Assembly: GCA_963920635.1 (NCBI GenBank)
Contig: OY987299.1
Coordinates: forward strand, 64,834,692-64,898,691
Length of the DNA stretch: 64,000 bases
Source: Pseudeuparius sepicola
Lineage: Eukaryota; Arthropoda; Insecta; Coleoptera; Anthribidae
Reading direction: 5' to 3'
Positions 14,438 to 64,000 of the stretch are shown one piece after another (positions within the stretch are counted from its first letter, which is position 1; each line of letters starts with the position of its first letter). The notes beneath the pieces are model-generated. The model made no database searches. It was not told where the DNA came from and worked only from the letters and a program-made list of their open reading frames with translations. The position numbers were made by a program, and so were the translations under genes.

Positions 14438-15206
14438 ATGAAAATCACGCAGATCAACCTACAGCATGGCAGGGCCTCAACGGCTCAGTTCTGCAGAAAG
14501 GTGGTGCGTGAGAATGTGGACATTGTACTTATCCAGGAACCCTGGATAGTATAAAATAAGGCGCGGGGTTTAGGCTCCATTGGAGGTAATCTGTTTTCAG
14601 CGGATGCCTCACAGGCCTGCGTACTTATGAGGCCCTGGGGCCTTTCTTTACGAGACCTGTCATCATGGATCTGCCTGGGGGGGGGGGGTTATGCAGCAAG
14701 TAGTGATAGCCTCAGCATACTTCCCTATACAGGCCCAGTGTCCACCGGAGGAGCTCAGAGTTCTGGGCACCTTCTGTGAGGAAAGAGGTTTCCCCCTTCT
14801 TGTGGGATGCGATAGCAATGCCCACCACTTTTTGTGGGGCAGTGCAGATTGTAACCGCAGGGGGAACCAATTGACAGAATTCATGGCAACGGCGGGGCTA
14901 CACGCCGCCAACCGTGGTTCAGAATGCACATTCTTCACACTGGGGAGGCATTCCGTCATAGATCTTACCCTATGTACGGGACCGCCTCTCGAAGAAGTGG
15001 GGGACTGGCACATGTCTATGGACGACTCTCTGTCGGACCATATATACATCTCGTTCACTGTCGGGGAACCCCCTCAGGGTGACCTAGAGTACAGAAATCC
15101 GCGAGCAACCAACTGGGACCTCTATAGAGAGGAACTAGAGGGGTGGCTGGCGGGTTTCCCATGCAAATACAGAACCATGGAGGAGCTCGCCGCCACCGCT
15201 CAGTGA
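14438..15206 (+). pseudogene. LINE ORF2 APE-type endonuclease domain
   Basis: ATG at 14438 starts KITQINLQHGRAST; the catalytic Glu is in LIQEPW. An in-frame stop follows at about 14552, and a frameshift occurs in a run of G near 14680. The domain then continues with VVIASAYFP, VGCDSNAHHFLWGS, VIDLTLC and SLSDHIYISF, supplying the Asp/Asn and terminal Asp-His of the exonuclease-endonuclease-phosphatase fold. The enzyme would nick the target DNA to prime reverse transcription. A TGA at 15204 interrupts the link to the RT in the same frame. Confidence 0.8.
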
Positions 15207-16603
15207 CTGGGCTCCATCATTGCTCAATTGTATGAGGCCAACTGTCCCCTGAAAAGGAGGACAAAGGAGGGCAAGACACCTTGGTGGAATGCCAACCTGG
15301 AACACCTCAGAAGGCAGGTTCGTAGGCTCTTGAATAGGGCCAAACGTTCCTGCCTTAGAGTCCACTGGGAGGACTACAGGTCCTCCCAAAGACTCTACAA
15401 ACATGAGATCAGGAACTCACAGAAAAGTGCCTGGCGGGACTACTGCGAGGGCGTCAATAGCACGCCTGCAGCTTCTAGGCTCTGCAGGGTGCTCTCGACA
15501 GATCCTCTGGCAAAGCTGGGCATCATTCGCACTGGGGAGGGGGAGTTTACCTCATTCCCGAGTGATACCCTGCTGCAGTTGTTGACCACTCACTTCCCGG
15601 GTTCCATATTAGATCACGAGGAGGCCGCGGTGAGTGGCTCGCTAACTACGGACTACGGCACAGCGGCCAGGGTGGTAAACGAGGAAAGGGTCAGATGAGC
15701 CATCGGGTCCTTCTCACCTTATAAGGCGGCCGGTCTGGATGGGGTCTTCCTGGCTCTTCTTCAGAGGGACGGGGGGCACTCACCGGACCACTGGTAGGTG
15801 TGTTTCAAGCGTCTGTGGCCAGCGGGCATGTTCCCTGGCGATGGATGCAGATCAGGGTGATTTTTATCCCCAAGCCGGGGCGCAGTGATTATACTGATAC
15901 CAAGGCATACAGACTCATGAGCCTCACCAGCTTCTTGATGAAGACACTGGGGAGGCTGGTGGACAGATATTTAAGGGAGCAGCTTGCTCTCAATGCCTCT
16001 CTGTGTCCCACCCAGCATGCGTACCAGATGGGCAGGTCTGTGGATTCGGCCCTGCTTTTCAGGGGACACCGCAAGGCTTGACGAGGGACTGGAGGGGGGA
16101 TTACTCTCGGTGGGGGTCTTTCTAGACATAGAGGGGACCTTTGACAACACAGCAGGGGACTCGATCTGCAGGGCCGTGGAGGGCACAGAGGTCGGGGAAG
16201 CCTTGGTAAGGTGGACCCAATCCATGCTCAGTGGCAGGGCGGTCGAGGCCGGGCTGTACGGAGAACGAGTGACCGTCAATGCCTCAAGAAGTTGTTCTCA
16301 GGGAGCAGTTTTGTCCCCCCTCCTTTGGTGCATGGTGGTTGATGAGCTGCTTCGAATCCTGGAGGAGGAGCAGGGGTCTACGTAATAGTGATCCTAGTTC
16401 AAGGCACCGACGTGGGGCTTCTGGAGGAGCTCCTTAACGGAGCTCTGGAGAGGTTCTCACGCTGGTGCGTTATGAACGGATTAAATGTCAACCCTAATAA
16501 GTTGAGTTGGTGATATTCACCAAGAAGGGAAAGGTGGACCCTATTCCTCACACAGAGTTATGTGGGGTCCACCTCGAGAATAGAAAGAAGGTTAAATATC
16601 TAG

Positions 16604-16916
16604 GATATAAGGAATCAATTAATTACCGAAGCAATTAATTGATCATGGATTATTATAACGATAGCACAACCGAAGGTGCGGGATAAAGCCACTGGTCTTG
16701 ATTGGCAAAGGCTCACGCCACAATTACTGAGACCCGCCATCTACCGTCTCCACAGTGCTATCGTTATAATACTCCATGAGCAATTAATTGCTTCGGTAAT
16801 TAATTAAATTATATAGTAAATCCATCGTCTAGCCACTTCACAGTCGGGTGAGTCATACTGATGAGGGATCACCGTCCCGAAACAGTACTGTATATGGTAG
16901 ACTATTGCTCTTTTTG
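16604..16916 (+). mobile_element. 313-bp hammerhead-bearing insertion (retrozyme-like)
   Basis: The insert sits inside the LINE RT and is flanked by a perfect 10-bp duplication, AAATATCTAG, at 16594-16603 and 16917-16926. Its first two thirds form a long imperfect hairpin: TACCGAAGCAATTAATTG near 16630 and GATTATTATAACGATAGCAC pair with the complementary stretch at about 16738-16800. Its last part holds a complete hammerhead ribozyme. It has no coding capacity and its composition is unlike the surrounding LINE. Small hammerhead-encoding circular-RNA elements (retrozymes) are known from plants and animals, and size, ribozyme type and target duplication fit that class. How it is mobilised is inference. 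Confidence 0.7.
16850..16903 (+). ncRNA. Type I hammerhead ribozyme
   Basis: All conserved core positions are present: CTGATGA at 16858-16864 and GAA at 16879-16881. Stem II is GGGA (16865-16868) with TCCC (16875-16878) and loop TCACCG. Stem III is ACAG (16882-16885) with CTGT (16888-16891) closed by TA. H17 is A16892, so cleavage would fall between 16892 and 16893. Stem I pairs GTCATA (16852-16857) with TATGGT (16893-16898), ending in two G-U pairs. Alternatively, ATA/TAT is followed by AGTC pairing with GACT at 16900-16903 across an internal loop. Open stem I makes it type I. Confidence 0.85.
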
Positions 16917-17060
16917 AAATATCTAGAAGTCTGGCTGGATTCCTGATTGACCTTCGAGGAGCATATCCCCATGAGGACCAAGAAGGCGTGTAATGCGTTT
17001 TGGGCGTGTCGCAGAGCCGTTGGCACCTCGTGGGGATTGAACCCTAGGATCATGCTCTTT

Positions 17061-17238
17061 ATCTGTTTAAAAGATCTAAAAAACTTGTCCTTTCACCTGC
17101 TTACCATCGTCAACATGCAAATCCAGGACCCGCTACACTTTTTTATACCCTCAGTTTTCACCAAATGCATTTAGCAATTTTTTTGTTTAAAATCGGACAC
17201 CATAGCGTTAATAAGGCCACCAAATACCGGGTGCGGTA
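17061..17238. repeat. AT-rich insert in the LINE RT-RNase H linker
   Basis: An AT-rich stretch breaks the GC-rich LINE between the RT thumb and the RNase H linker. Its distal part, around TTTAAAATCGGACACCATAG, resembles 7960-8040, so it probably derives from a dispersed repeat. No termini are defined. Confidence 0.5.
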
Positions 17239-18113
17239 GTGGAGTACGAGGCGGTCAAGGCGGCCCTCAGATTAGAGGGTCTCAACCTTTGGGTCGCCGG
17301 TGGCTCGGTCCCCGGACACCGGCAGCTGTGGTCAGAGCTGAGGGAGGAGGTGCCCATCCTGGAAATGAGAAGGGAGACTCCTTCCATCGGCTTCCACGGC
17401 CGACTTCACTTTGTCTTTCCAGACAGGGAGGAGTGGGCCGAAGGAAATAGCGTCCCTATGGCGGGCTCATCTGGTTCACAGACAGATCCAAGATGAGGAA
17501 GGGAACGGGGGCCAGTGCCTTTTGTCAGGAACTGGCTAGGAGGTTGACTACCTCCCTCGCGGAGCACACCACCGTGTTCCAGGCGGAGGTGTTCGCCATC
17601 ATGATGGAGGCAGAGGAATCGCTCAAGCTCAGAGTTAAGGGCCGGAAGCTGACCTTCTGCTCTGACAGTAAAGCGGCTTTACAGGCGCTGAGAGCAAACC
17701 GTACCTGGTCCCCATTGGTGGAGGACTGTAGAATGAGTTTGCTCAGGCTGGTGGCCAAAGGGAACAGGGTTGTTCTGTCGTGGGTGCCTGGTCATGCGGG
17801 CATAGCGGGGAAGGAGACTGCGGACCTACTGGCTAGAGAGGGATCCATGGGAAGACCAGTGGGGCCAGAACTAATATTGGGGATTGCGCCACGGGTCGCA
17901 ATTGGAGCCCTGGATGAATGGCTGCATGGCAGGTTTGTTGAGGAGTGGCGCCGGGCTCCGGGGATGAGGCAGAATAGGCTCATGATTCGTGGGCCGTCGA
18001 CCGCCCTGTCTAGGGAGCTGCTGCATCTGCCAAGGTCGGAGTTAAAGGGAGTGGTAAGGGTCCTCACCGGACACTGGTTCCTGGCTCGCCACCTGCGCCT
18101 TATAGGAGTGGGA
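17239..18113 (+). pseudogene. LINE ORF2 RNase H domain
   Basis: After a linker with EAVKAALRLEGLNLWVAG, the RNase H domain reads WFTDRSKM, FQAEVFAIM, CSDSKAALQAL and WVPGHAGIAGKETADLLA. These supply the Asp-Glu-Asp and His/Asp residues of the fold, although the usual DGSK is DRSK. A frame change near 17480 joins linker and domain. The sequence ends abruptly at GVG near 18110; the copy at 51.0-51.9 kb continues there with a Cys/His finger, so this copy is truncated at its 3' end. RNase H removes the RNA strand during element cDNA synthesis. Confidence 0.8.
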
Positions 18114-18901
18114 CAGCAAATTATTTTCACAATTAATTTTTAATCTCTCTAACGAAAAGATATATACAAGGTGGTCCAACTTTTATAGGCAAAACTTCAA
18201 GAATCTATGGAAAACGCCAAAATAAATAGATTTTTTCATATAAACATGTATCGAAATCCTAACGGTTTTCGTTACACAGTTTAGACACACATTAAATGCT
18301 ATAAATTAAAAATTATTCAGCATGTGTACTTCCACACATGTAGAGTGCGAAATAGGCAAGCATATATCTTGAGCACGTCTCGTGCAGCAACCTGAGCTAT
18401 CTAGTAAGGGAGTAAGGGTTAAAATTTTGTGGTGTATGAAAAGAGAGCGACACGAATCTGGTGGTTTCTGAAGCACAAACACAGACTTGAGCAGCACTAG
18501 CCCACAATTTCCCCAAAAACATATCCCATATCTTAAATGTGACTCGATAAGTGCAAAGTAGAGGGTTCTTGCCAAAGCCACACTCGTTTCAACAGATATA
18601 ACTCTTATAGCAAATTATCCCCTCGCCAGTTTGTCCCGTAGATAACCTATATGTTGCTGAAAAGATAGTTTGTCGTTGATCTGTAGGCCCAGGAAACTGC
18701 AACAAGCAGTATCAGCAACTGTTAGATCGTCCAAGACAATCCGATGTACGAAACCCCCAAATGTCAATATTTTTGTTTTTTGAACATTGAAAGACAACTG
18801 ATTAGAGTTACACCAGGCCTTAACCTTGAGAACATTATTGGTTGGTGTGGCTCTTAGGAGATAGGGGTCCTTACCATGACAGAGCAAGGTAGTGTCGTCA
18901 G

Positions 18902-50999: not shown

Positions 51000-51930
51000 C
51001 CGCCTTAGATCGGCCCGGCACGTAGGCCACAGTGGGCCCGTTGTGCCCCAACAGGCCAGCATGCTGGCCCTCTTGATGAAGGCCCGCAGCTCACCCACCC
51101 CGACACCATACGCATCCTCCACACCCAGCTTAGCTTAGCCGAAGGACTCAAATCTGACCCTCTCGAGTGCAGGGCACTTGGTGACCAAGTGGTACGGGGT
51201 CTCCTCATCCTCCTGATACCATCTGCACTCAGGCTCCCCTCCTACTCCTATAAGGTGCAGGTGGCGAGGCAGGCAGCAGTGTCCGGTGAGGACCCTCACC
51301 ACTCCCCTCAACTCCGACCTTGGCAGATGCAGCAGCTCCCTAGACAGGGCGGTCAATGGCCCACGAATCATGAGCCTAGTCTGCCTCATCCCCGGAGCCC
51401 GGCGCCACTCCTCAACGAACCTGCCCTGCAGATATATATTGGTTCTGGCCCCACTGGTCTTCCCCTCTCTGGCCAGTAGGTCCGCAGTCTCGTTCCCCGC
51501 TATGCCCGCATGACCAGGCACCCATGACAGAACAACCCTGTTCCCTTCGGCCACCGGCCTAAGCAAACTCGGTCTACAGTCCTCCACAAATGGGGACCAG
51601 GTACGGTTTGCTCTCAGCGCCTGTAAAGCCGCTTTACTGTCAGAGCAGAAGGTCAGCTTCCGGCCCTTAACTCTGAGCCTGAGCGATTCCTCTGCCCCCA
51701 TCATGATGGCGAACACCTCCGCCTGGAACACGGTGGTGTGCTCCCCAAGGGAGGTAGTCAACCTCCTAGCCAGTTCCTGACAAAAGGCACCGGCCCCCGT
51801 TCCCTTCCCCATCTTGGATCCGTCTGTGAACCAGACGAGCCCGCCTTGGGGGTTGCTGTTCCCCTCGGCCCACTCCTCCCTGTCTGGAAAGACAAAGTGG
51901 AGCCGGCCATGGAAGCCGATGGAAGGCGTA
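51000..51930 (-). pseudogene. GC-rich LINE fragment: RNase H and C-terminal finger
   Basis: The minus-strand frame of 225 codons contains FQAEVFAIMMGAEE, CSDSKAALQAL and WVPGHAGIAGNETADLLA, nearly identical in protein to 17493-18113. It also has the C-terminal part lost there: ECRWYQEDEETPYHLVTKCP, a CCHC-like finger. It stops at 51135 and the remaining 130 bases run to a GATAGATAG tail at about 50985. The copy is 5'-truncated at about 51930 and lies inside another LINE. Confidence 0.85.
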
Positions 51931-55801: not shown

Positions 55802-55942
55802 CGTTTTTGCATAGAGTGCCTTGGAAACGTAAGTCCCATAATGTTTGACGTTTTTGCGTAGAGTGCCTTGGAAACATAAGCCCCATAATGTTTGACATTT
55901 CTGCATCGAATGCCTTGGAAACATAAGCCCCATATAACGTTT
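55802..55942. repeat. 47-bp minisatellite, three copies, left arm
   Basis: Units begin at 55802, 55849 and 55896. Each contains TTTTTGCATAGAGTGCCTTG or a close variant, followed by GAAACATAAGCCCCATA. The third unit is the most diverged. An inverted set of three lies at about 56310-56440. Confidence 0.85.
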
Positions 55943-56309: not shown

Positions 56310-56440
56310 TAGGCTTATGTTTCCAAGGCACTCTATGCAAAAACTTCAAACATTATGGGGCTTATGTTTCCAAGGCACTCTATGCAAAAACGTCAAACAT
56401 TATGGGGCTTACGTTCCCAAGGCACTCTATGCAAAAACGA
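56310..56440. repeat. 47-bp minisatellite, three copies, right arm
   Basis: Three inverted copies of the same unit, with CAAGGCACTCTATGCAAAAA and AACATTATGGGGCTTA. Copy number equals that in the left arm, so the array existed before, or was copied with, the arm duplication. Confidence 0.8.
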
Positions 56441-59280: not shown

Positions 59281-62200
59281 TTACTTCAGTAAATTTTCAC
59301 CAGGCACAACCGGTTTCAGATCTTTCGCACTCCACGTACCAGCTACTCGCCCATCTTCACCTTCCAACTCATAAGTCCAGGGTGAAAGCCGCTTCTTGAC
59401 CAAAAATGGTCCTATAAACTGAGGTGCCAGTTTCTTAGAAAAATACTTGGCTGCGTCTGACAAAGCAAAATTGCGTCTCCAAACAGCTTGTCCAGGATAA
59501 AATTCCTCTGCCCTTCGCCTAAGATTGTAGGTTGAGACACTTTTCCTAGCAGCTATATCTAATCGCTCCCGTACGTCTTCAAATAACTTCTTAAAGTTCC
59601 GAGTCCGACTGTCGAGGTTTGGTACACCAGGGACCTCCTGAGAATCTCCTGTAGCCAATGACTTACTATATTCCTCACCATTCAGAACCATACGTCTCCC
59701 AAAGTTCACAAAAAATGGTGTCTGACCCGTTGAATCGTGAGTCGCAGTCCTCAAAGCGCATGCTATTTTCGCCAAATTTAAATCCCAATCTCTATGACTC
59801 TCAGATACATAGCTAGCTAACATTGTCTTAAGTGTTCGGTTTACTCTCTCCGTAGGATTCGCTTGAAGGTGATAGTGTGCATTATAACGTATCTTGCAGT
59901 GATATTCCTCCGCCAACTTCTGGAACTGCCTGGAACGATATTGAGGACCGTTATCACAGATAATTAAACGGGGAACCCCAAACATCAAAAAGACACCTTC
60001 CTCTATTTTTCTTGACACAATCTCAGCGTTAGCAGAACGCAAAGGAGCGATTACAGAGAATTTCGAGAATAGGTCTGTCACAACTAGAATGTACTGATGT
60101 CCTCGCTTAGATCTTGGCAAAGGCCCCATAAGATCAGTAGACACTATCTCCCATGGACGAAGTGCCCTAGGCTGAATGGTCATGTGGCCCCTTGGAGGAG
60201 CATTTTCAGACTTGTGCATGGCACACACTTTACATGCCCTTACATAACTGGCAACATCCCGTTTCATCTTCGGCCAGTAGTACTTCTCTGCAAGACGGTT
60301 GTATGTCTTTGCCACACCGAAATGACCAGCCAATGGGGGATCATGGAGACTAGCAATGACTTCTCTTCTTCTTCTTTTGGGGACAACTTGCTTCCATCTT
60401 TCCGACGGATCCCGTAAGTCCGCATATGGCACTCTCACGTGCTTATAAAGTTGCCCATCGATTATATTCCAATTGGGAAACTTCCTAGGACTCTTCGCCA
60501 CTTCATCCACCATCTTATTATACCATGGATCTTCAATGGTTGTGGTGACGACGTCTAGGACAGGCACACTTCTGCTAAGAGTATCAGGCACTACCAAATC
60601 CTTCCCTTTCCGGTGTATAATCTTAAAATCGAATTGTTGCATCTGCAAACTCCATCTCGCAAGTCGTCCAGTAGGATCACGCAAATTCTGTAACCACACC
60701 AAGGAATGGTGGTCAGTAACTACCTGGAAAGGTATGCCCTCCAAATAGGGTCTCAATTTCTCCACTGCCCAAAGAACTGCAAGGCATTCCCTTTCTGTCG
60801 TAGAATAATTCCTTTCCTGTCTTGTTAAGGAACGGCTGAGGTATGAAATCACTCTATCTCCATCTGGATACTGCTGCAGAAGAACGGCACCCAAACCAAA
60901 ACCTGAAGCATCGGTCTCTACCGTAAATGGCAATTCATAATTCGGACAGCTAAGGACAGGTGCAGAAATGAGATGTTCCTTTATTTTCGTAAGCGCGTTC
61001 TCACACACAGGTGTCCACACAAAACTCTTGGACTTCTTCAAAAGCGCAGTTAAGGGAGCTACGAGAGTAGAAAAGTCCGGCAAAAATCTCCGATACCAGC
61101 TAAAAGTGCCTAGGAATCTTCGTACCCCCTTGACAGAAGAGGGACTAGGAAGCTGCACCATCGCTCGAACCTTGTCCGGATCAACATGAAGGCCTTTGCT
61201 ATCGACAACATACCCCAGATATTTCATCTCCGGAGTACAAAACCTACATTTCTCCCAACTAACAGTGATGTTGGCTTCTCGAAGCCTCCTAAAAACCTCT
61301 TCTAAAACTTCAACATGTTTCTCAAAAGTTTGCGAGACTATCACCACGTCATCCAAATAAACAAACACATGGGGATGTAGTTCTGGTCCCAAAATAGAAT
61401 CCATAAGACGTTGCCATGTCGCTGGGGAGTTATGAAGACCAAACGGCATCCTGGTGAACTCAAACAACCCTCTACCAGGTACCGTGAAAGCCGTATAAGA
61501 TCGTGATTCTTTCGCAACGCTCACTTGCCAAAAGGCGCTCTTAATATCCAGCGAAGACAAGTAATGGGCCTCACGTAACTTGTCCAAAGTATGTGACACA
61601 TAAGGCAAAGGATATCCATCTCTTTCCGTAACTGAGTTCAGCTTCCTGTAGTCTACACAAAAGCGAAAATTCCCATCCTTCTTTTTGACTAACAATATAG
61701 GAGATGACCACGCACTCGTGGAAGGTTCCACCACGCCGAGCTGTAGCATCTCATCAAGCTCCTTGTTGATTTGGGCTTGAACCACTGGAGACACAGGGTA
61801 ATACCGCTGTTTAATGGGTGGTGAAGTAGTACGTATGACATGCTCAACTAAGCTGGTGCACCCCAACTTCTTCCCCATAAGTGCCTTGTTCCTACTCACA
61901 ATTTCCGCCAAGATAAGCTCCTGTTGACTCGTCAGCCCCGAGCTGTGTGTCGATTCGTCCACCTCTGTCAAGCTTAGGACCTCCTCATCAGTGGAAAAAT
62001 GCCATTCATCATGGAGTAGATCAGGTACCACTCCCATCTGCTTCCAAAAATTAACCCCAAGAATCAGCATATGAGGTAGCTCCGGCACCACCAGTGCCTT
62101 AATTAGCCGTAGCCTACCTCTGACGCAAAATGGTACCACACAACTCCCTGTACTTTGACATCTTTGACCATTAGCCACGGTAACCTTCCTAACATCACCC

Positions 62201-62448
62201 GAGTTCAAACTAAGCTTCAAAGTCCGAAGATATCCCCAACCAGGTCCACCTAAAATTGTCGCTGAAGCACCACTATCCAACAATCCTAGTATATCTCTGC
62301 CCAACACACTAACCTTCAAGTAAGGACGTTCATCCCCTTGCGCATGGTCTATGATGTAATTTAAAATGACCTTAATATTAGGGGTCGGTACTCGAAAATC
62401 AGCGTTCCTATTACGACTATTTAGGAACGCTGTGGCCCGTTTCCCTGC
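59281..62448 (-). CDS. pol: Gypsy element B pol polyprotein (open)
   Basis: The 1012 codons from Met at 62319 are uninterrupted, and the frame is open upstream to about 62448. Domains in order: protease with LDSGAS at residues 14-19; RT with VKKKDGNFRFCVDYRKLN (about 211), SLDIKSAFWQV (Asp about 258) and YLDD at 321-324; RNase H with ETDASGFGLGAVL; integrase with zinc-binding HHCC region, STDLMGPLP, ICDNGPQY and the NPTERVNRTL segment bearing the catalytic Glu; C-terminal domain ending PFLVKKRLSPWTYELEGE. No env follows. The frame is -1 relative to gag and overlaps it by about 28 bases, so expression by -1 frameshifting is likely. All catalytic residues seem present, suggesting recent activity. 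Confidence 0.9.
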   Translation of the reverse strand, partial: AGKRATAFLNSRNRNADFRVPTPNIKVILNYIIDHAQGDERPYLKVSVLGRDILGLLDSGASATILGGPGWGYLRTLKLSLNSGDVRKVTVANGQRCQSTGSCVVPFCVRGRLRLIKALVVPELPHMLILGVNFWKQMGVVPDLLHDEWHFSTDEEVLSLTEVDESTHSSGLTSQQELILAEIVSRNKALMGKKLGCTSLVEHVIRTTSPPIKQRYYPVSPVVQAQINKELDEMLQLGVVEPSTSAWSSPILLVKKKDGNFRFCVDYRKLNSVTERDGYPLPYVSHTLDKLREAHYLSSLDIKSAFWQVSVAKESRSYTAFTVPGRGLFEFTRMPFGLHNSPATWQRLMDSILGPELHPHVFVYLDDVVIVSQTFEKHVEVLEEVFRRLREANITVSWEKCRFCTPEMKYLGYVVDSKGLHVDPDKVRAMVQLPSPSSVKGVRRFLGTFSWYRRFLPDFSTLVAPLTALLKKSKSFVWTPVCENALTKIKEHLISAPVLSCPNYELPFTVETDASGFGLGAVLLQQYPDGDRVISYLSRSLTRQERNYSTTERECLAVLWAVEKLRPYLEGIPFQVVTDHHSLVWLQNLRDPTGRLARWSLQMQQFDFKIIHRKGKDLVVPDTLSRSVPVLDVVTTTIEDPWYNKMVDEVAKSPRKFPNWNIIDGQLYKHVRVPYADLRDPSERWKQVVPKRRRREVIASLHDPPLAGHFGVAKTYNRLAEKYYWPKMKRDVASYVRACKVCAMHKSENAPPRGHMTIQPRALRPWEIVSTDLMGPLPRSKRGHQYILVVTDLFSKFSVIAPLRSANAEIVSRKIEEGVFLMFGVPRLIICDNGPQYRSRQFQKLAEEYHCKIRYNAHYHLQANPTERVNRTLKTMLASYVSESHRDWDLNLAKIACALRTATHDSTGQTPFFVNFGRRMVLNGEEYSKSLATGDSQEVPGVPNLDSRTRNFKKLFEDVRERLDIAARKSVSTYNLRRRAEEFYPGQAVWRRNFALSDAAKYFSKKLAPQFIGPFLVKKRLSPWTYELEGEDGRVAGTWSAKDLKPVVPGENLLK

Positions 62449-63794
62449 CTATTGCAGTTCGGACAGTTCCTAGTTGTCACCCCCTCCTTCTTGCATCTAT
62501 AGCAATGGAGTCTTCTTTTCTCAAGGCACCCTATCGCCTTGTGACCACGCCTATGGCAGTTGTAACAAACGAGTTGACTCGTAGACTGGTTCTCCGACAC
62601 AGTACTACAGGTCTCCGATGTGCTAGCGCCAACGTAAGCCAAATCTGGCTCCAACGTTGCATGCGGCCGGCGACTTGGCAACGAAAAGGCTTCTACCGCC
62701 TCACGACGAGATTCCAATCTTCTTCCGAGAGTTCTCAATTGTGCGATGGAAGTGATATCTACAAGCCCCAGCTGTGTCTGATAGTACGGAGAGATGTTCC
62801 TCAAAATAACCTTCAACTGCACAGATTCCGACACCGAACAAGTGAGACGACTAAACATCGCTGACATAATCGAGAGATAGATCCCTATAGATTCGTCTGG
62901 ACCTTGTGTCCGCCTCTTGATCTCCTCAAAAAGTTTCTCATTGTAGTCAGTGGGTTGGAATTCCTCCCTCAACAACTTCACGAGGCTGTCCCAACTTGTG
63001 ACCTCCTTTCGCACGGCACGGTACCAGATGAGCGCTTTTCCCGAAAACAGGTCCACTGCAGTGTCAAAAAGCTCCTCAGAATCTACATGTCGAGCAACCA
63101 TAAGTTCCTCGACTCTCTGCAGAAACGAATTCAGCGATATACCCTTCTTCTCACCTGAAAACTTCAGATCCCAACGTGAAACCGGAGTTGACCTTATATA
63201 ACGCCTTGTAGGTGCTATTCCCGACCTTCTAGATACATCAGCCTCTGCGGTCACACCCACAAATTCGTCGTCTGTTTCTGACGAAGATGCAACCTCCAAA
63301 ATCGAAATGTCCGGAGGGGCATCCCGCTCAACTTCGAACTTCCTCTCCTTTTCCTCCAAAAGAAGCATCAATCCCGCAACCTGGGCCAACAAATCTGCCT
63401 TCTTCGCCTGGTTCCCCTGCGTTACCTCACCTTCTACTTCTGGTCGCATGTTCTCGATCCTGCCATAAACATGGTTCAACTTCGACTCCCACTTAGCGTA
63501 GGCATGGCTAGCCTTGCCATCAGCGAAACCTGCCAAACCCGTCGAAATCTCTTCCAATTTGTCAGTTACCGCCGACAAATCCTGCGCAAAAGTGTAGGGG
63601 TAAGCCGGTCGCTCTACCCCAGTGCCATCTCTCTCCATTTGCAAAGCGCGTGACAACGACGCCCTCATAGGTTCCACGTTACCTACTTCCATACCTCGCA
63701 CTGTCAATTCGTACACTAGTTCCTCTTGAGTGAGCCTATTGGGCCTCATCTTCCTGGTGGCCATCCTGCCGATTGGTCCCAATGCGGTGTACAC
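62421..63794 (-). CDS. gag: Gypsy element B gag (open)
   Basis: 457 codons without a stop from Met at 63794; Met 11 (MATRKMRPNR, at 63764) is an equally plausible start. Residues about 205-365 form the retrotransposon gag core, with WDLKFSGEKKGISLNSFLQR, ALIWYRAVRKEV and LLREEFQPTDY. The N-terminal half is charged, with a likely coiled coil near 100-170. Two CCHC-like knuckles lie at the C-terminus: CYNCHRRGHKAIGC is canonical, while in CYRCKKEGVTTRNC the His is replaced by Val. The protein ends in GPQRS, overlapping pol. Gag forms the virus-like particle and binds element RNA. Confidence 0.9.
   Translation of the reverse strand: MYTALGPIGRMATRKMRPNRLTQEELVYELTVRGMEVGNVEPMRASLSRALQMERDGTGVERPAYPYTFAQDLSAVTDKLEEISTGLAGFADGKASHAYAKWESKLNHVYGRIENMRPEVEGEVTQGNQAKKADLLAQVAGLMLLLEEKERKFEVERDAPPDISILEVASSSETDDEFVGVTAEADVSRRSGIAPTRRYIRSTPVSRWDLKFSGEKKGISLNSFLQRVEELMVARHVDSEELFDTAVDLFSGKALIWYRAVRKEVTSWDSLVKLLREEFQPTDYNEKLFEEIKRRTQGPDESIGIYLSIMSAMFSRLTCSVSESVQLKVILRNISPYYQTQLGLVDITSIAQLRTLGRRLESRREAVEAFSLPSRRPHATLEPDLAYVGASTSETCSTVSENQSTSQLVCYNCHRRGHKAIGCLEKRRLHCYRCKKEGVTTRNCPNCNRQGNGPQRS
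62439..62445 (-). promoter_or_regulatory. -1 frameshift slippery heptamer at the gag/pol overlap
   Basis: On the minus strand the gag reading frame passes CAG GGA AAC, giving the heptamer G GGA AAC in the exact X XXY YYZ phase needed for -1 slippage. After slipping, the pol frame is open to its end; the gag stop follows 18 bases after the heptamer. A stimulatory structure downstream was not modelled. Confidence 0.65.
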
Positions 63795-64000
63795 GATACC
63801 CTATTAAACAACTATAGTACCATATACCACGCTTCCACTAATACTACCGATCGCAAGACAAAACTATTACCAAGAAGTTCACTCACCAGAACCCGAGTCA
63901 CTTACCAACCCTAAAACTGTAAGACAACCAACTGCCTCCGCAAAAACGTGTAACCTCTCAAAAATAGGACAAACTCCTTCAAAAACAGGCCCCCTTTAAA
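63795..64000 (-). other. Leader of gypsy element B upstream of gag
   Basis: This stretch lies 5' of gag on the minus strand and should be untranslated leader. Neither the primer-binding site nor the 5' LTR can be identified before the window ends. Confidence 0.45.

What the first reader, a model, noticed from the sequence alone, without database searches (positions are those of the whole stretch)
16604..16916. A 313-bp hammerhead-ribozyme element with a 10-bp target duplication inside a LINE
The insert is flanked by perfect AAATATCTAG copies and contains a complete type I hammerhead: core CTGATGA/GAA, four-pair stem II, four-pair stem III with TA loop, and pairing stem I. Upstream is a long imperfect hairpin. 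There is no coding capacity. Small hammerhead-bearing circular-RNA retroelements (retrozymes) are known in plants and animals. This copy shows a single unit with one ribozyme, rather than the usual tandem dimer, and a hairpin body. It may be a new family mobilised by a LINE- or Penelope-type RT.
Basis: partly seen in the sequence, partly recalled or inferred. Interest (0 to 1): 0.88.

Follow-up and report, generated by a model that had tools for sequence, protein, structure and literature searches.

The report
Ribozyme retroelement inserted from both ends
A small non-coding jumping gene that carries a self-cutting RNA appears to be copied into DNA from both sides of the cut at once, starting at two fixed points on its RNA, and Penelope-type jumping genes in the same genome leave the same scar.

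Summary
In detail: an insert flanked by a 10-bp target duplication splits a LINE reverse-transcriptase gene and carries a canonical-looking type I hammerhead. The reading needs correcting. The genome holds many relatives, mostly tandem arrays of a 298-bp unit: a metazoan-type non-LTR retrozyme. The window copy is not a single unit with a hairpin body; it is two partial units joined head-to-head, and the hairpin is the overlap of the inverted arms. Of 65 elements examined, 44 have two arms, each antisense-left/sense-right. Outer ends fall at two fixed unit positions, S1 (~u111) and S2 (~u295), bracketing the hammerhead. In all 37 two-arm elements with both ends assignable, one end is S1 and the other S2 (14 of these from a second, later set); inner junctions scatter. 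Best explanation: both DNA ends of a staggered cut prime reverse transcription on a circular RNA, one end at each site. Penelope-like elements here show the same pattern (14 of 15 two-arm copies with both ends in known classes; the exception is a palindromic rearrangement), pointing to them as the mover. No RNA data or cleavage assay was available, and Rfam does not recognise the hammerhead.

The parts
16594..16603 (.). left copy of the target-site duplication AAATATCTAG
16605..16753 (-). left arm: antisense partial unit, outer end at u291 (site S2 class), inner end u143; base 16604 is not assigned to either
   Evidence: L025 997-1145; window = L025 + 15608
16755..16916 (+). right arm: sense partial unit, inner end u229, through u298/u1, outer end u108 (site S1 class)
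   Evidence: L025 1147-1308
16617..16667 (+). 5' arm of the 51-nt inverted repeat (overlap of the two arms)
16755..16805 (+). 3' arm of the 51-nt inverted repeat
16842..16903 (+). type I hammerhead: stem I outer 16842-16845/16900-16903, stem I inner 16854-16857/16893-16896, core 16858-16864, stem II 16865-16868/16875-16878 with loop 16869-16874, GAA 16879-16881, stem III 16882-16884/16889-16891; predicted cleavage 16892|16893
   Evidence: consensus pairing
16917..16926 (.). right copy of the target-site duplication
14631..18143 (+). host LINE (endonuclease ORF 14631-15206, RNase H ORF 17451-18143, frameshifted RT between), interrupted by the element

Best explanation
The element is a truncated copy of a metazoan-type non-LTR retrozyme (298-bp unit with one type I hammerhead). 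Inferred cycle: tandem genomic arrays are transcribed, the hammerhead cuts the RNA to unit length and a host ligase closes it into a circle (taken from published retrozyme work, not tested here). A Penelope-type protein, probably a dimer, cuts AT-rich DNA with a 10-14 nt stagger that leaves two 3' ends; each end primes reverse transcription on the sense circular RNA, one at internal site S1 and the other at internal site S2. Each cDNA may run round the circle several times. The two antisense cDNAs stop at variable points and are joined head-to-head, often through microhomology or filler, giving TSD-[antisense arm]-[sense arm]-TSD. Shown: head-to-head polarity, two fixed outer sites, one of each per assignable insertion, variable inner junctions, TSDs, microhomology at outer ends, similarity of the two arms of one element, and the same signature in Penelope-like elements of this genome. 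Inferred: circular template, dimer, and Penelope as the mover.
For: 44 of 65 elements have two arms, 0 of the reverse polarity; 37 of 37 assignable two-arm elements use S1 on one side and S2 on the other, including 14 of 14 in the second set. Outer ends at the sites 101 of 109, inner or 5' ends 13 of 109. TSDs 10-14 bp in 22 of 40, 12-14 bp in the 14 assignable two-arm elements of set 2. Microhomology at outer ends 1.66 vs 0.49 nt expected. Opposite arms of one element resemble each other more than other elements in 21 of 23. Penelope-like elements with a hammerhead-like motif are present, and 14 of 15 of their two-arm copies with both ends in known classes obey the same rule. Purified anole Penelope protein cuts and extends both strands and starts at two internal RNA sites (PMC11167929).
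Against: No RNA or biochemical data. Rfam misses the hammerhead; its fold is not the minimum-energy one, even in the consensus; it is not significantly more conserved than the rest of the unit (P 0.32). In the anole study sites did not differ between strands, and hammerhead cleavage was not needed in vitro. One Penelope pair has the same site on both ends (rearranged). No blastn similarity links retrozyme and the Penelope unit examined. LINEs were not tested for the same rule. Multi-unit arms could also come from uncut multimeric RNA.
Confidence: 0.77

Rival explanations
1. The same two-ended priming, but done by a LINE (APE-type endonuclease) RT as in L1 twin priming, with S1 and S2 as LINE-recognised sites.
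For: Polarity, TSDs and a 5' inversion are what twin priming predicts (recalled); LINEs are present in the window.
Against: Two fixed start sites used one per end and the same rule in Penelope-like elements here; L1 second priming is variable (recalled). LINE copies were not surveyed.
Confidence: 0.14
2. Inverted arms arise by fold-back (self-)priming or from antisense or mixed-polarity RNA, as proposed for rotifer Penelope elements.
For: Proposed in print for head-to-head Penelope copies with palindromes at the junction (passages of PMC3846280); longest complementary run at retrozyme junctions exceeds permutations (P 0.001); several element pairs share similar junctions.
Against: Inner coordinates of the two arms are within 10 nt in 1 of 44 and within 20 nt in 2 of 44, 6 expected by chance; fold-back does not explain why each end uses a different site or why both outer ends share microhomology with the target.
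Confidence: 0.05
3. A MITE- or satellite-like repeat with a chance or dead hammerhead motif and no circular RNA stage.
For: No Rfam hit, a competing lower-energy fold, no excess conservation.
Against: 66 copies match a loose hammerhead descriptor in the 39 loci of set 1 (the descriptor itself demands parts of the motif); the unit has the size, tandem form, GC under 0.5 (0.46) and long TSDs of published metazoan retrozymes; the inverted repeat is not terminal; end and truncation patterns are those of reverse transcription.
Confidence: 0.04

Closest known systems
Metazoan non-LTR retrozymes (Cervera and de la Pena 2020, PMC7229834)
   Same: Type I hammerhead, ~300-bp non-coding tandem unit, GC under 50%, TSDs longer than 4 bp, no LTR.
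   Different: The text read does not describe head-to-head arms or two fixed start sites (parts 1-4 of 6 read; no hit for inverted or orientation). This hammerhead is not recognised by Rfam.
Penelope-like elements (rotifer copies, PMC3846280; anole PAc protein, PMC11167929)
   Same: Head-to-head inverted arm, short TSD, a tail on one of the inverted ends, hammerhead near the start sites, both strands primed, two internal start sites.
   Different: The retrozyme has no ORF; its S1-S2 interval is ~111 nt and holds the hammerhead, against 31 nt in the Penelope family here; one start site per DNA end in every assignable insertion is the addition made here.
L1 twin priming (recalled, no call)
   Same: Second DNA end primes on the same sense RNA, giving a 5' inversion.
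   Different: Linear poly(A) RNA, second priming site variable, inversions a minority (recalled).

Membership tests
Metazoan non-LTR retrozyme | type I hammerhead with conserved core and three stems | tested here: met
   Sequence and descriptor; but not recognised by Rfam
Metazoan non-LTR retrozyme | non-coding tandem unit of about 170-400 bp, GC under 50% | tested here: met
   298-bp unit in tandem, GC 0.46, longest ORF 41 aa
Metazoan non-LTR retrozyme | TSDs longer than the 4 bp of plant retrozymes, no LTR | tested here: met
   10-14 bp in 22 of 40 elements; TSD not found above threshold in the other 18
Metazoan non-LTR retrozyme | RNA self-cleaves and accumulates as circles | not testable with these tools
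   no RNA data or assay
Penelope-like element (membership) | ORF with telomerase-like RT and GIY-YIG endonuclease | tested here: not met
   Longest ORF 41 aa: it is not a Penelope-like element itself
Penelope-type insertion (works like) | head-to-head arms with TSD, two end classes, one per side | tested here: met
   37 of 37 assignable retrozymes; 14 of 15 Penelope two-arm copies with both ends in known classes
Passenger of the examined 3136-bp Penelope family | shared RNA sequence at the start sites | tested here: inconclusive
   Local resemblance at S1, score 12, shuffle P 0.018, noticed by eye; no blastn hit
L1-type twin priming by a LINE | LINE copies of this genome show the same end rule | not tested
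   LINE copies were not surveyed

The most novel reading that the evidence does not exclude
Penelope-class retrotransposition is intrinsically two-ended: an RT/endonuclease dimer holds one (circular) RNA at two non-equivalent sites near the hammerhead and obligately primes one target end at each, so every complete insertion carries one 'tailed' and one 'untailed' antisense start. The optional Penelope tail is a signature of this rule, and animal retrozymes are circular passengers that kept just the ribozyme and the two docking sites.
Probability: 0.5. Interest if true: 0.85.

Novelty: new variant of a known kind. Interest (0 to 1): 0.74.

Why it matters
Which RT moves animal retrozymes is open in the papers read (Penelope-like elements are called a strong candidate). 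These insertions give genomic evidence for the Penelope route, add a simple countable rule (one start site per DNA end) for a retroelement class whose mechanism is little known, explain head-to-head retrozyme and Penelope copies without fold-back priming, and make the model testable with one purified protein and one small RNA.

Tried and rejected
Single-unit hairpin element: rejected, the hairpin is the overlap of two inverted arms. First stem I pairing (GTCTA/TAGAC plus a side hairpin): replaced after the family consensus showed GATAGTC/GACTATC. Loop II pseudoknot GGTGA/TCACC: possible, no clear covariation by eye in alignment A1 (39 of the 63 distinct copies plus the window); pair counts were not run. 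Excess conservation of the hammerhead: not found. cDNA run-off at the cleavage site: 7 of 109 inner or 5' ends at u80-90, about 4 expected, no clear excess. Joining through base pairs of the rod fold: not supported by pairing probabilities (P 0.25), although the longest complementary run exceeds permutations (P 0.001) and total matches do not (P 0.12). Strong fold of the circle: the 298-nt consensus folds only 2.5 sd below shuffles, so the z of -9.5 of the insert comes from the inverted arms. Viral contigs: no exact match for the hammerhead core, no relative of P0001. Species not identified.

Full report
What is there. The insert at 16604-16916 is real: perfect 10-bp repeats AAATATCTAG flank it, and the sequence without it reads as a LINE reverse-transcriptase frame across the join, aligned without a gap to an intact LINE protein, 32 of 79 identical. 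The right part carries a type I hammerhead. A matching descriptor, written after seeing the motif, appeared once in 400 simulated windows. Rfam does not support it: no hit at the curated threshold in the window, a weak type III match (15.1 bits, E 4.1), and no hammerhead hit in a younger family member.

Copies in the genome. The window lies in an unnamed 769-Mb assembly of 16 contigs. Searching it with the element gave 212 matches with only 40 of 666 candidates scored; a second query, a unit from locus L030, gave 212 matches with 40 of 699 scored. I fetched 39 loci covering the listed matches of the first search, the window's own among them, and 26 further loci from the second. Both match tables were cut short, so copy number is a lower bound and the sample favours high-scoring copies.

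The unit. Splitting the element in two showed that elsewhere the halves lie in opposite relative orientation, in tandem arrays of about 298 bp. A majority consensus of 18 full units served as a ruler. In unit coordinates the hammerhead spans about u31-98 with predicted cleavage after u84; its outer stem I is GATAGTC/GACTATC. The window copy has lost part of this stem and a stretch just upstream of it (alignment), so it may cleave poorly. GC of the unit is 0.46 and the longest ORF 41 aa. The window element is a left arm u291-u143 antisense and a right arm u229-298, 1-108 sense.

The insertion rule. Set 1 holds 40 elements in 39 loci: 26 with two arms, all antisense-left/sense-right, and 14 with one arm. 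Outer ends cluster at S1 (around u111...CTTTTTGTTCTA) and S2 (around u295...TATATAGTAAAT): 62 of 66 lie within 12 nt of a site, against 8 of 66 inner or 5' ends. Assigning ends within 15 nt, each assignable two-arm element used S1 on one side and S2 on the other (23 of 23; 3 more have an unassigned end). I then looked at the second set. Of its 26 loci (L055 and L056 share structure and flanks and count once) 18 are two-arm, none of reverse polarity; 14 have both ends assignable, all 14 are S1 plus S2, seven each way, and all 14 carry a TSD of 12-14 bp; the other 4 have an unassigned end and no TSD above threshold. Pooled, L056 dropped: 65 elements, 44 two-arm, 0 of reverse polarity, 37 opposite-site, 0 same-site, 7 unassigned; outer ends 101 of 109 at the sites, inner or 5' ends 13 of 109. 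Given the margins the chance is 6e-11 overall and 3e-4 for the second set alone. L027a shares its left flank with L027b and is not independent; it has one arm and does not touch the pairing count. A few other flanks share repeats.

Other signs of priming by DNA ends. TSDs pass a 99% threshold from mismatched flank pairs in 22 of 40 elements of set 1 and 16 of 26 loci of set 2. In the 22, length is 10-14 (median 12) and AT content 86%, against 65% in flanks. At 41 ends the target shares 1.66 nt on average with the RNA beyond the start point, 0.49 expected. In two-arm elements 55 of 88 arms exceed one unit, the longest 14.9 units; S1- and S2-started arms do not differ in length (P 0.82). Opposite arms of one element are closer to each other than, on average, to other elements in 21 of 23 comparable elements of set 1, although the nearest single copy lies in the same element in only 51 of 129 cases (same call). 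Inner junctions show microhomology of 4 nt or more in 10 of 44 (1.8% expected) and filler in 17 of 44. The inner coordinates of the two arms are within 10 nt in 1 of 44, which argues against fold-back priming. Seven pairs of elements have similar inner junctions, more than a hand estimate of about 1.3; I cannot explain that.

Reading. Both antisense arms need sense RNA as template, and their outer ends abut the two TSD copies. The simplest account is that the two 3' ends of a staggered cut each prime on the same kind of RNA, at two different fixed places that bracket the hammerhead. Circularity is inferred: multi-unit arms pass the cleavage site, but uncut multimeric RNA could give the same.

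Who moves it. Retrozyme papers leave this open between LINEs and Penelope-like elements. Penelope elements are described with an inverted terminal copy, TSDs of 8-10 bp and a 31-bp tail optionally present on one of the inverted ends (passages of PMC3846280). Purified anole Penelope protein cuts and extends both strands and starts at two internal RNA sites whose interval corresponds to the tail; that study saw no difference of start site between strands (PMC11167929, parts 1-3 of 4 read). In this genome a GIY-YIG search gave 132 matches (150 of 1365 candidates scored) with open frames up to 819 aa and a 3136-bp tandem period. A hammerhead-like motif lies in 14 of the 15 loci fetched, at the ATG, the layout reported for the anole element. 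Of 40 scored matches to the end region (187 candidates), 34 stop at u127-134, 5 run through, 1 stops at u151. The other end class stops at u93-99. Thirteen two-arm copies have one end of each class, all antisense-left/sense-right: the short end was read in sequence in six and taken from the alignment end in the hit table in seven, whose arms were paired by distance and whose TSDs were not checked. TSDs of 12-13 bp were found in the three checked. A copy of a second Penelope family, L089, has a 14-bp TSD and a tail on one arm only. Against: the pair at C9:15681478/15684630 has the long end on both sides, but its flanks are inverted copies of each other without a TSD, so I read it as a palindromic rearrangement; C5:48895263/48900087 has an odd end at u151; L075 could not be assigned. 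LINEs were not surveyed for the same rule. A local resemblance between the S1 regions of retrozyme and Penelope (score 12, shuffle P 0.018) was first seen by eye and is a lead only; blastn finds nothing.

In print? Searches of the held library: 'twin priming' with 'circular RNA' and 'retrotransposon' (two papers, unrelated by title), 'Penelope-like element' with 'twin priming' (none), 'retrozyme' with 'head-to-head' (none), 'retrozyme' with 'target-primed' (two, one being PMC7229834), 'retrozyme' with 'Penelope' and 'inverted' (five). Of PMC7229834 I read parts 1-4 of 6 and searched the main text for 'inverted' and 'orientation' (none). Of PMC11722881, PMC4918200, PMC7761336, PMC3846280 and PMC12910113 I saw passages. 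The library lacks most subscription papers, so absence there is weak evidence.

Verdict. The rule is strong in the data; the biochemical steps are inferred.

Noticed in passing
window 51240-51929 (-): Second copy of the host LINE, covering only its RNase H end (87% identical), so it cannot show the empty site.
   Followed up: partly
window 59281-63800 (-): Long open Ty3/Gypsy-like pol frame (1055 aa) next to a gag-like frame (459 aa).
   Followed up: no
window 55802-55934 and 56312-56439: 47-bp tandem repeats in opposite orientation about 0.4 kb apart, perhaps ends of another mobile element.
   Followed up: no
L086/L087, G000:C9:15681478-15684630: Penelope pair with identical end sites whose host flanks are inverted copies of each other, a palindromic rearrangement.
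   Followed up: partly
two-arm retrozyme loci (one search list): Sums of the two inner junction coordinates cluster (9 of 44 in one of 20 bins) without matching predicted RNA pairs; several junctions recur.
   Followed up: partly
L042: Long array in which some units share an internal deletion, perhaps a mixed or dimeric template.
   Followed up: no
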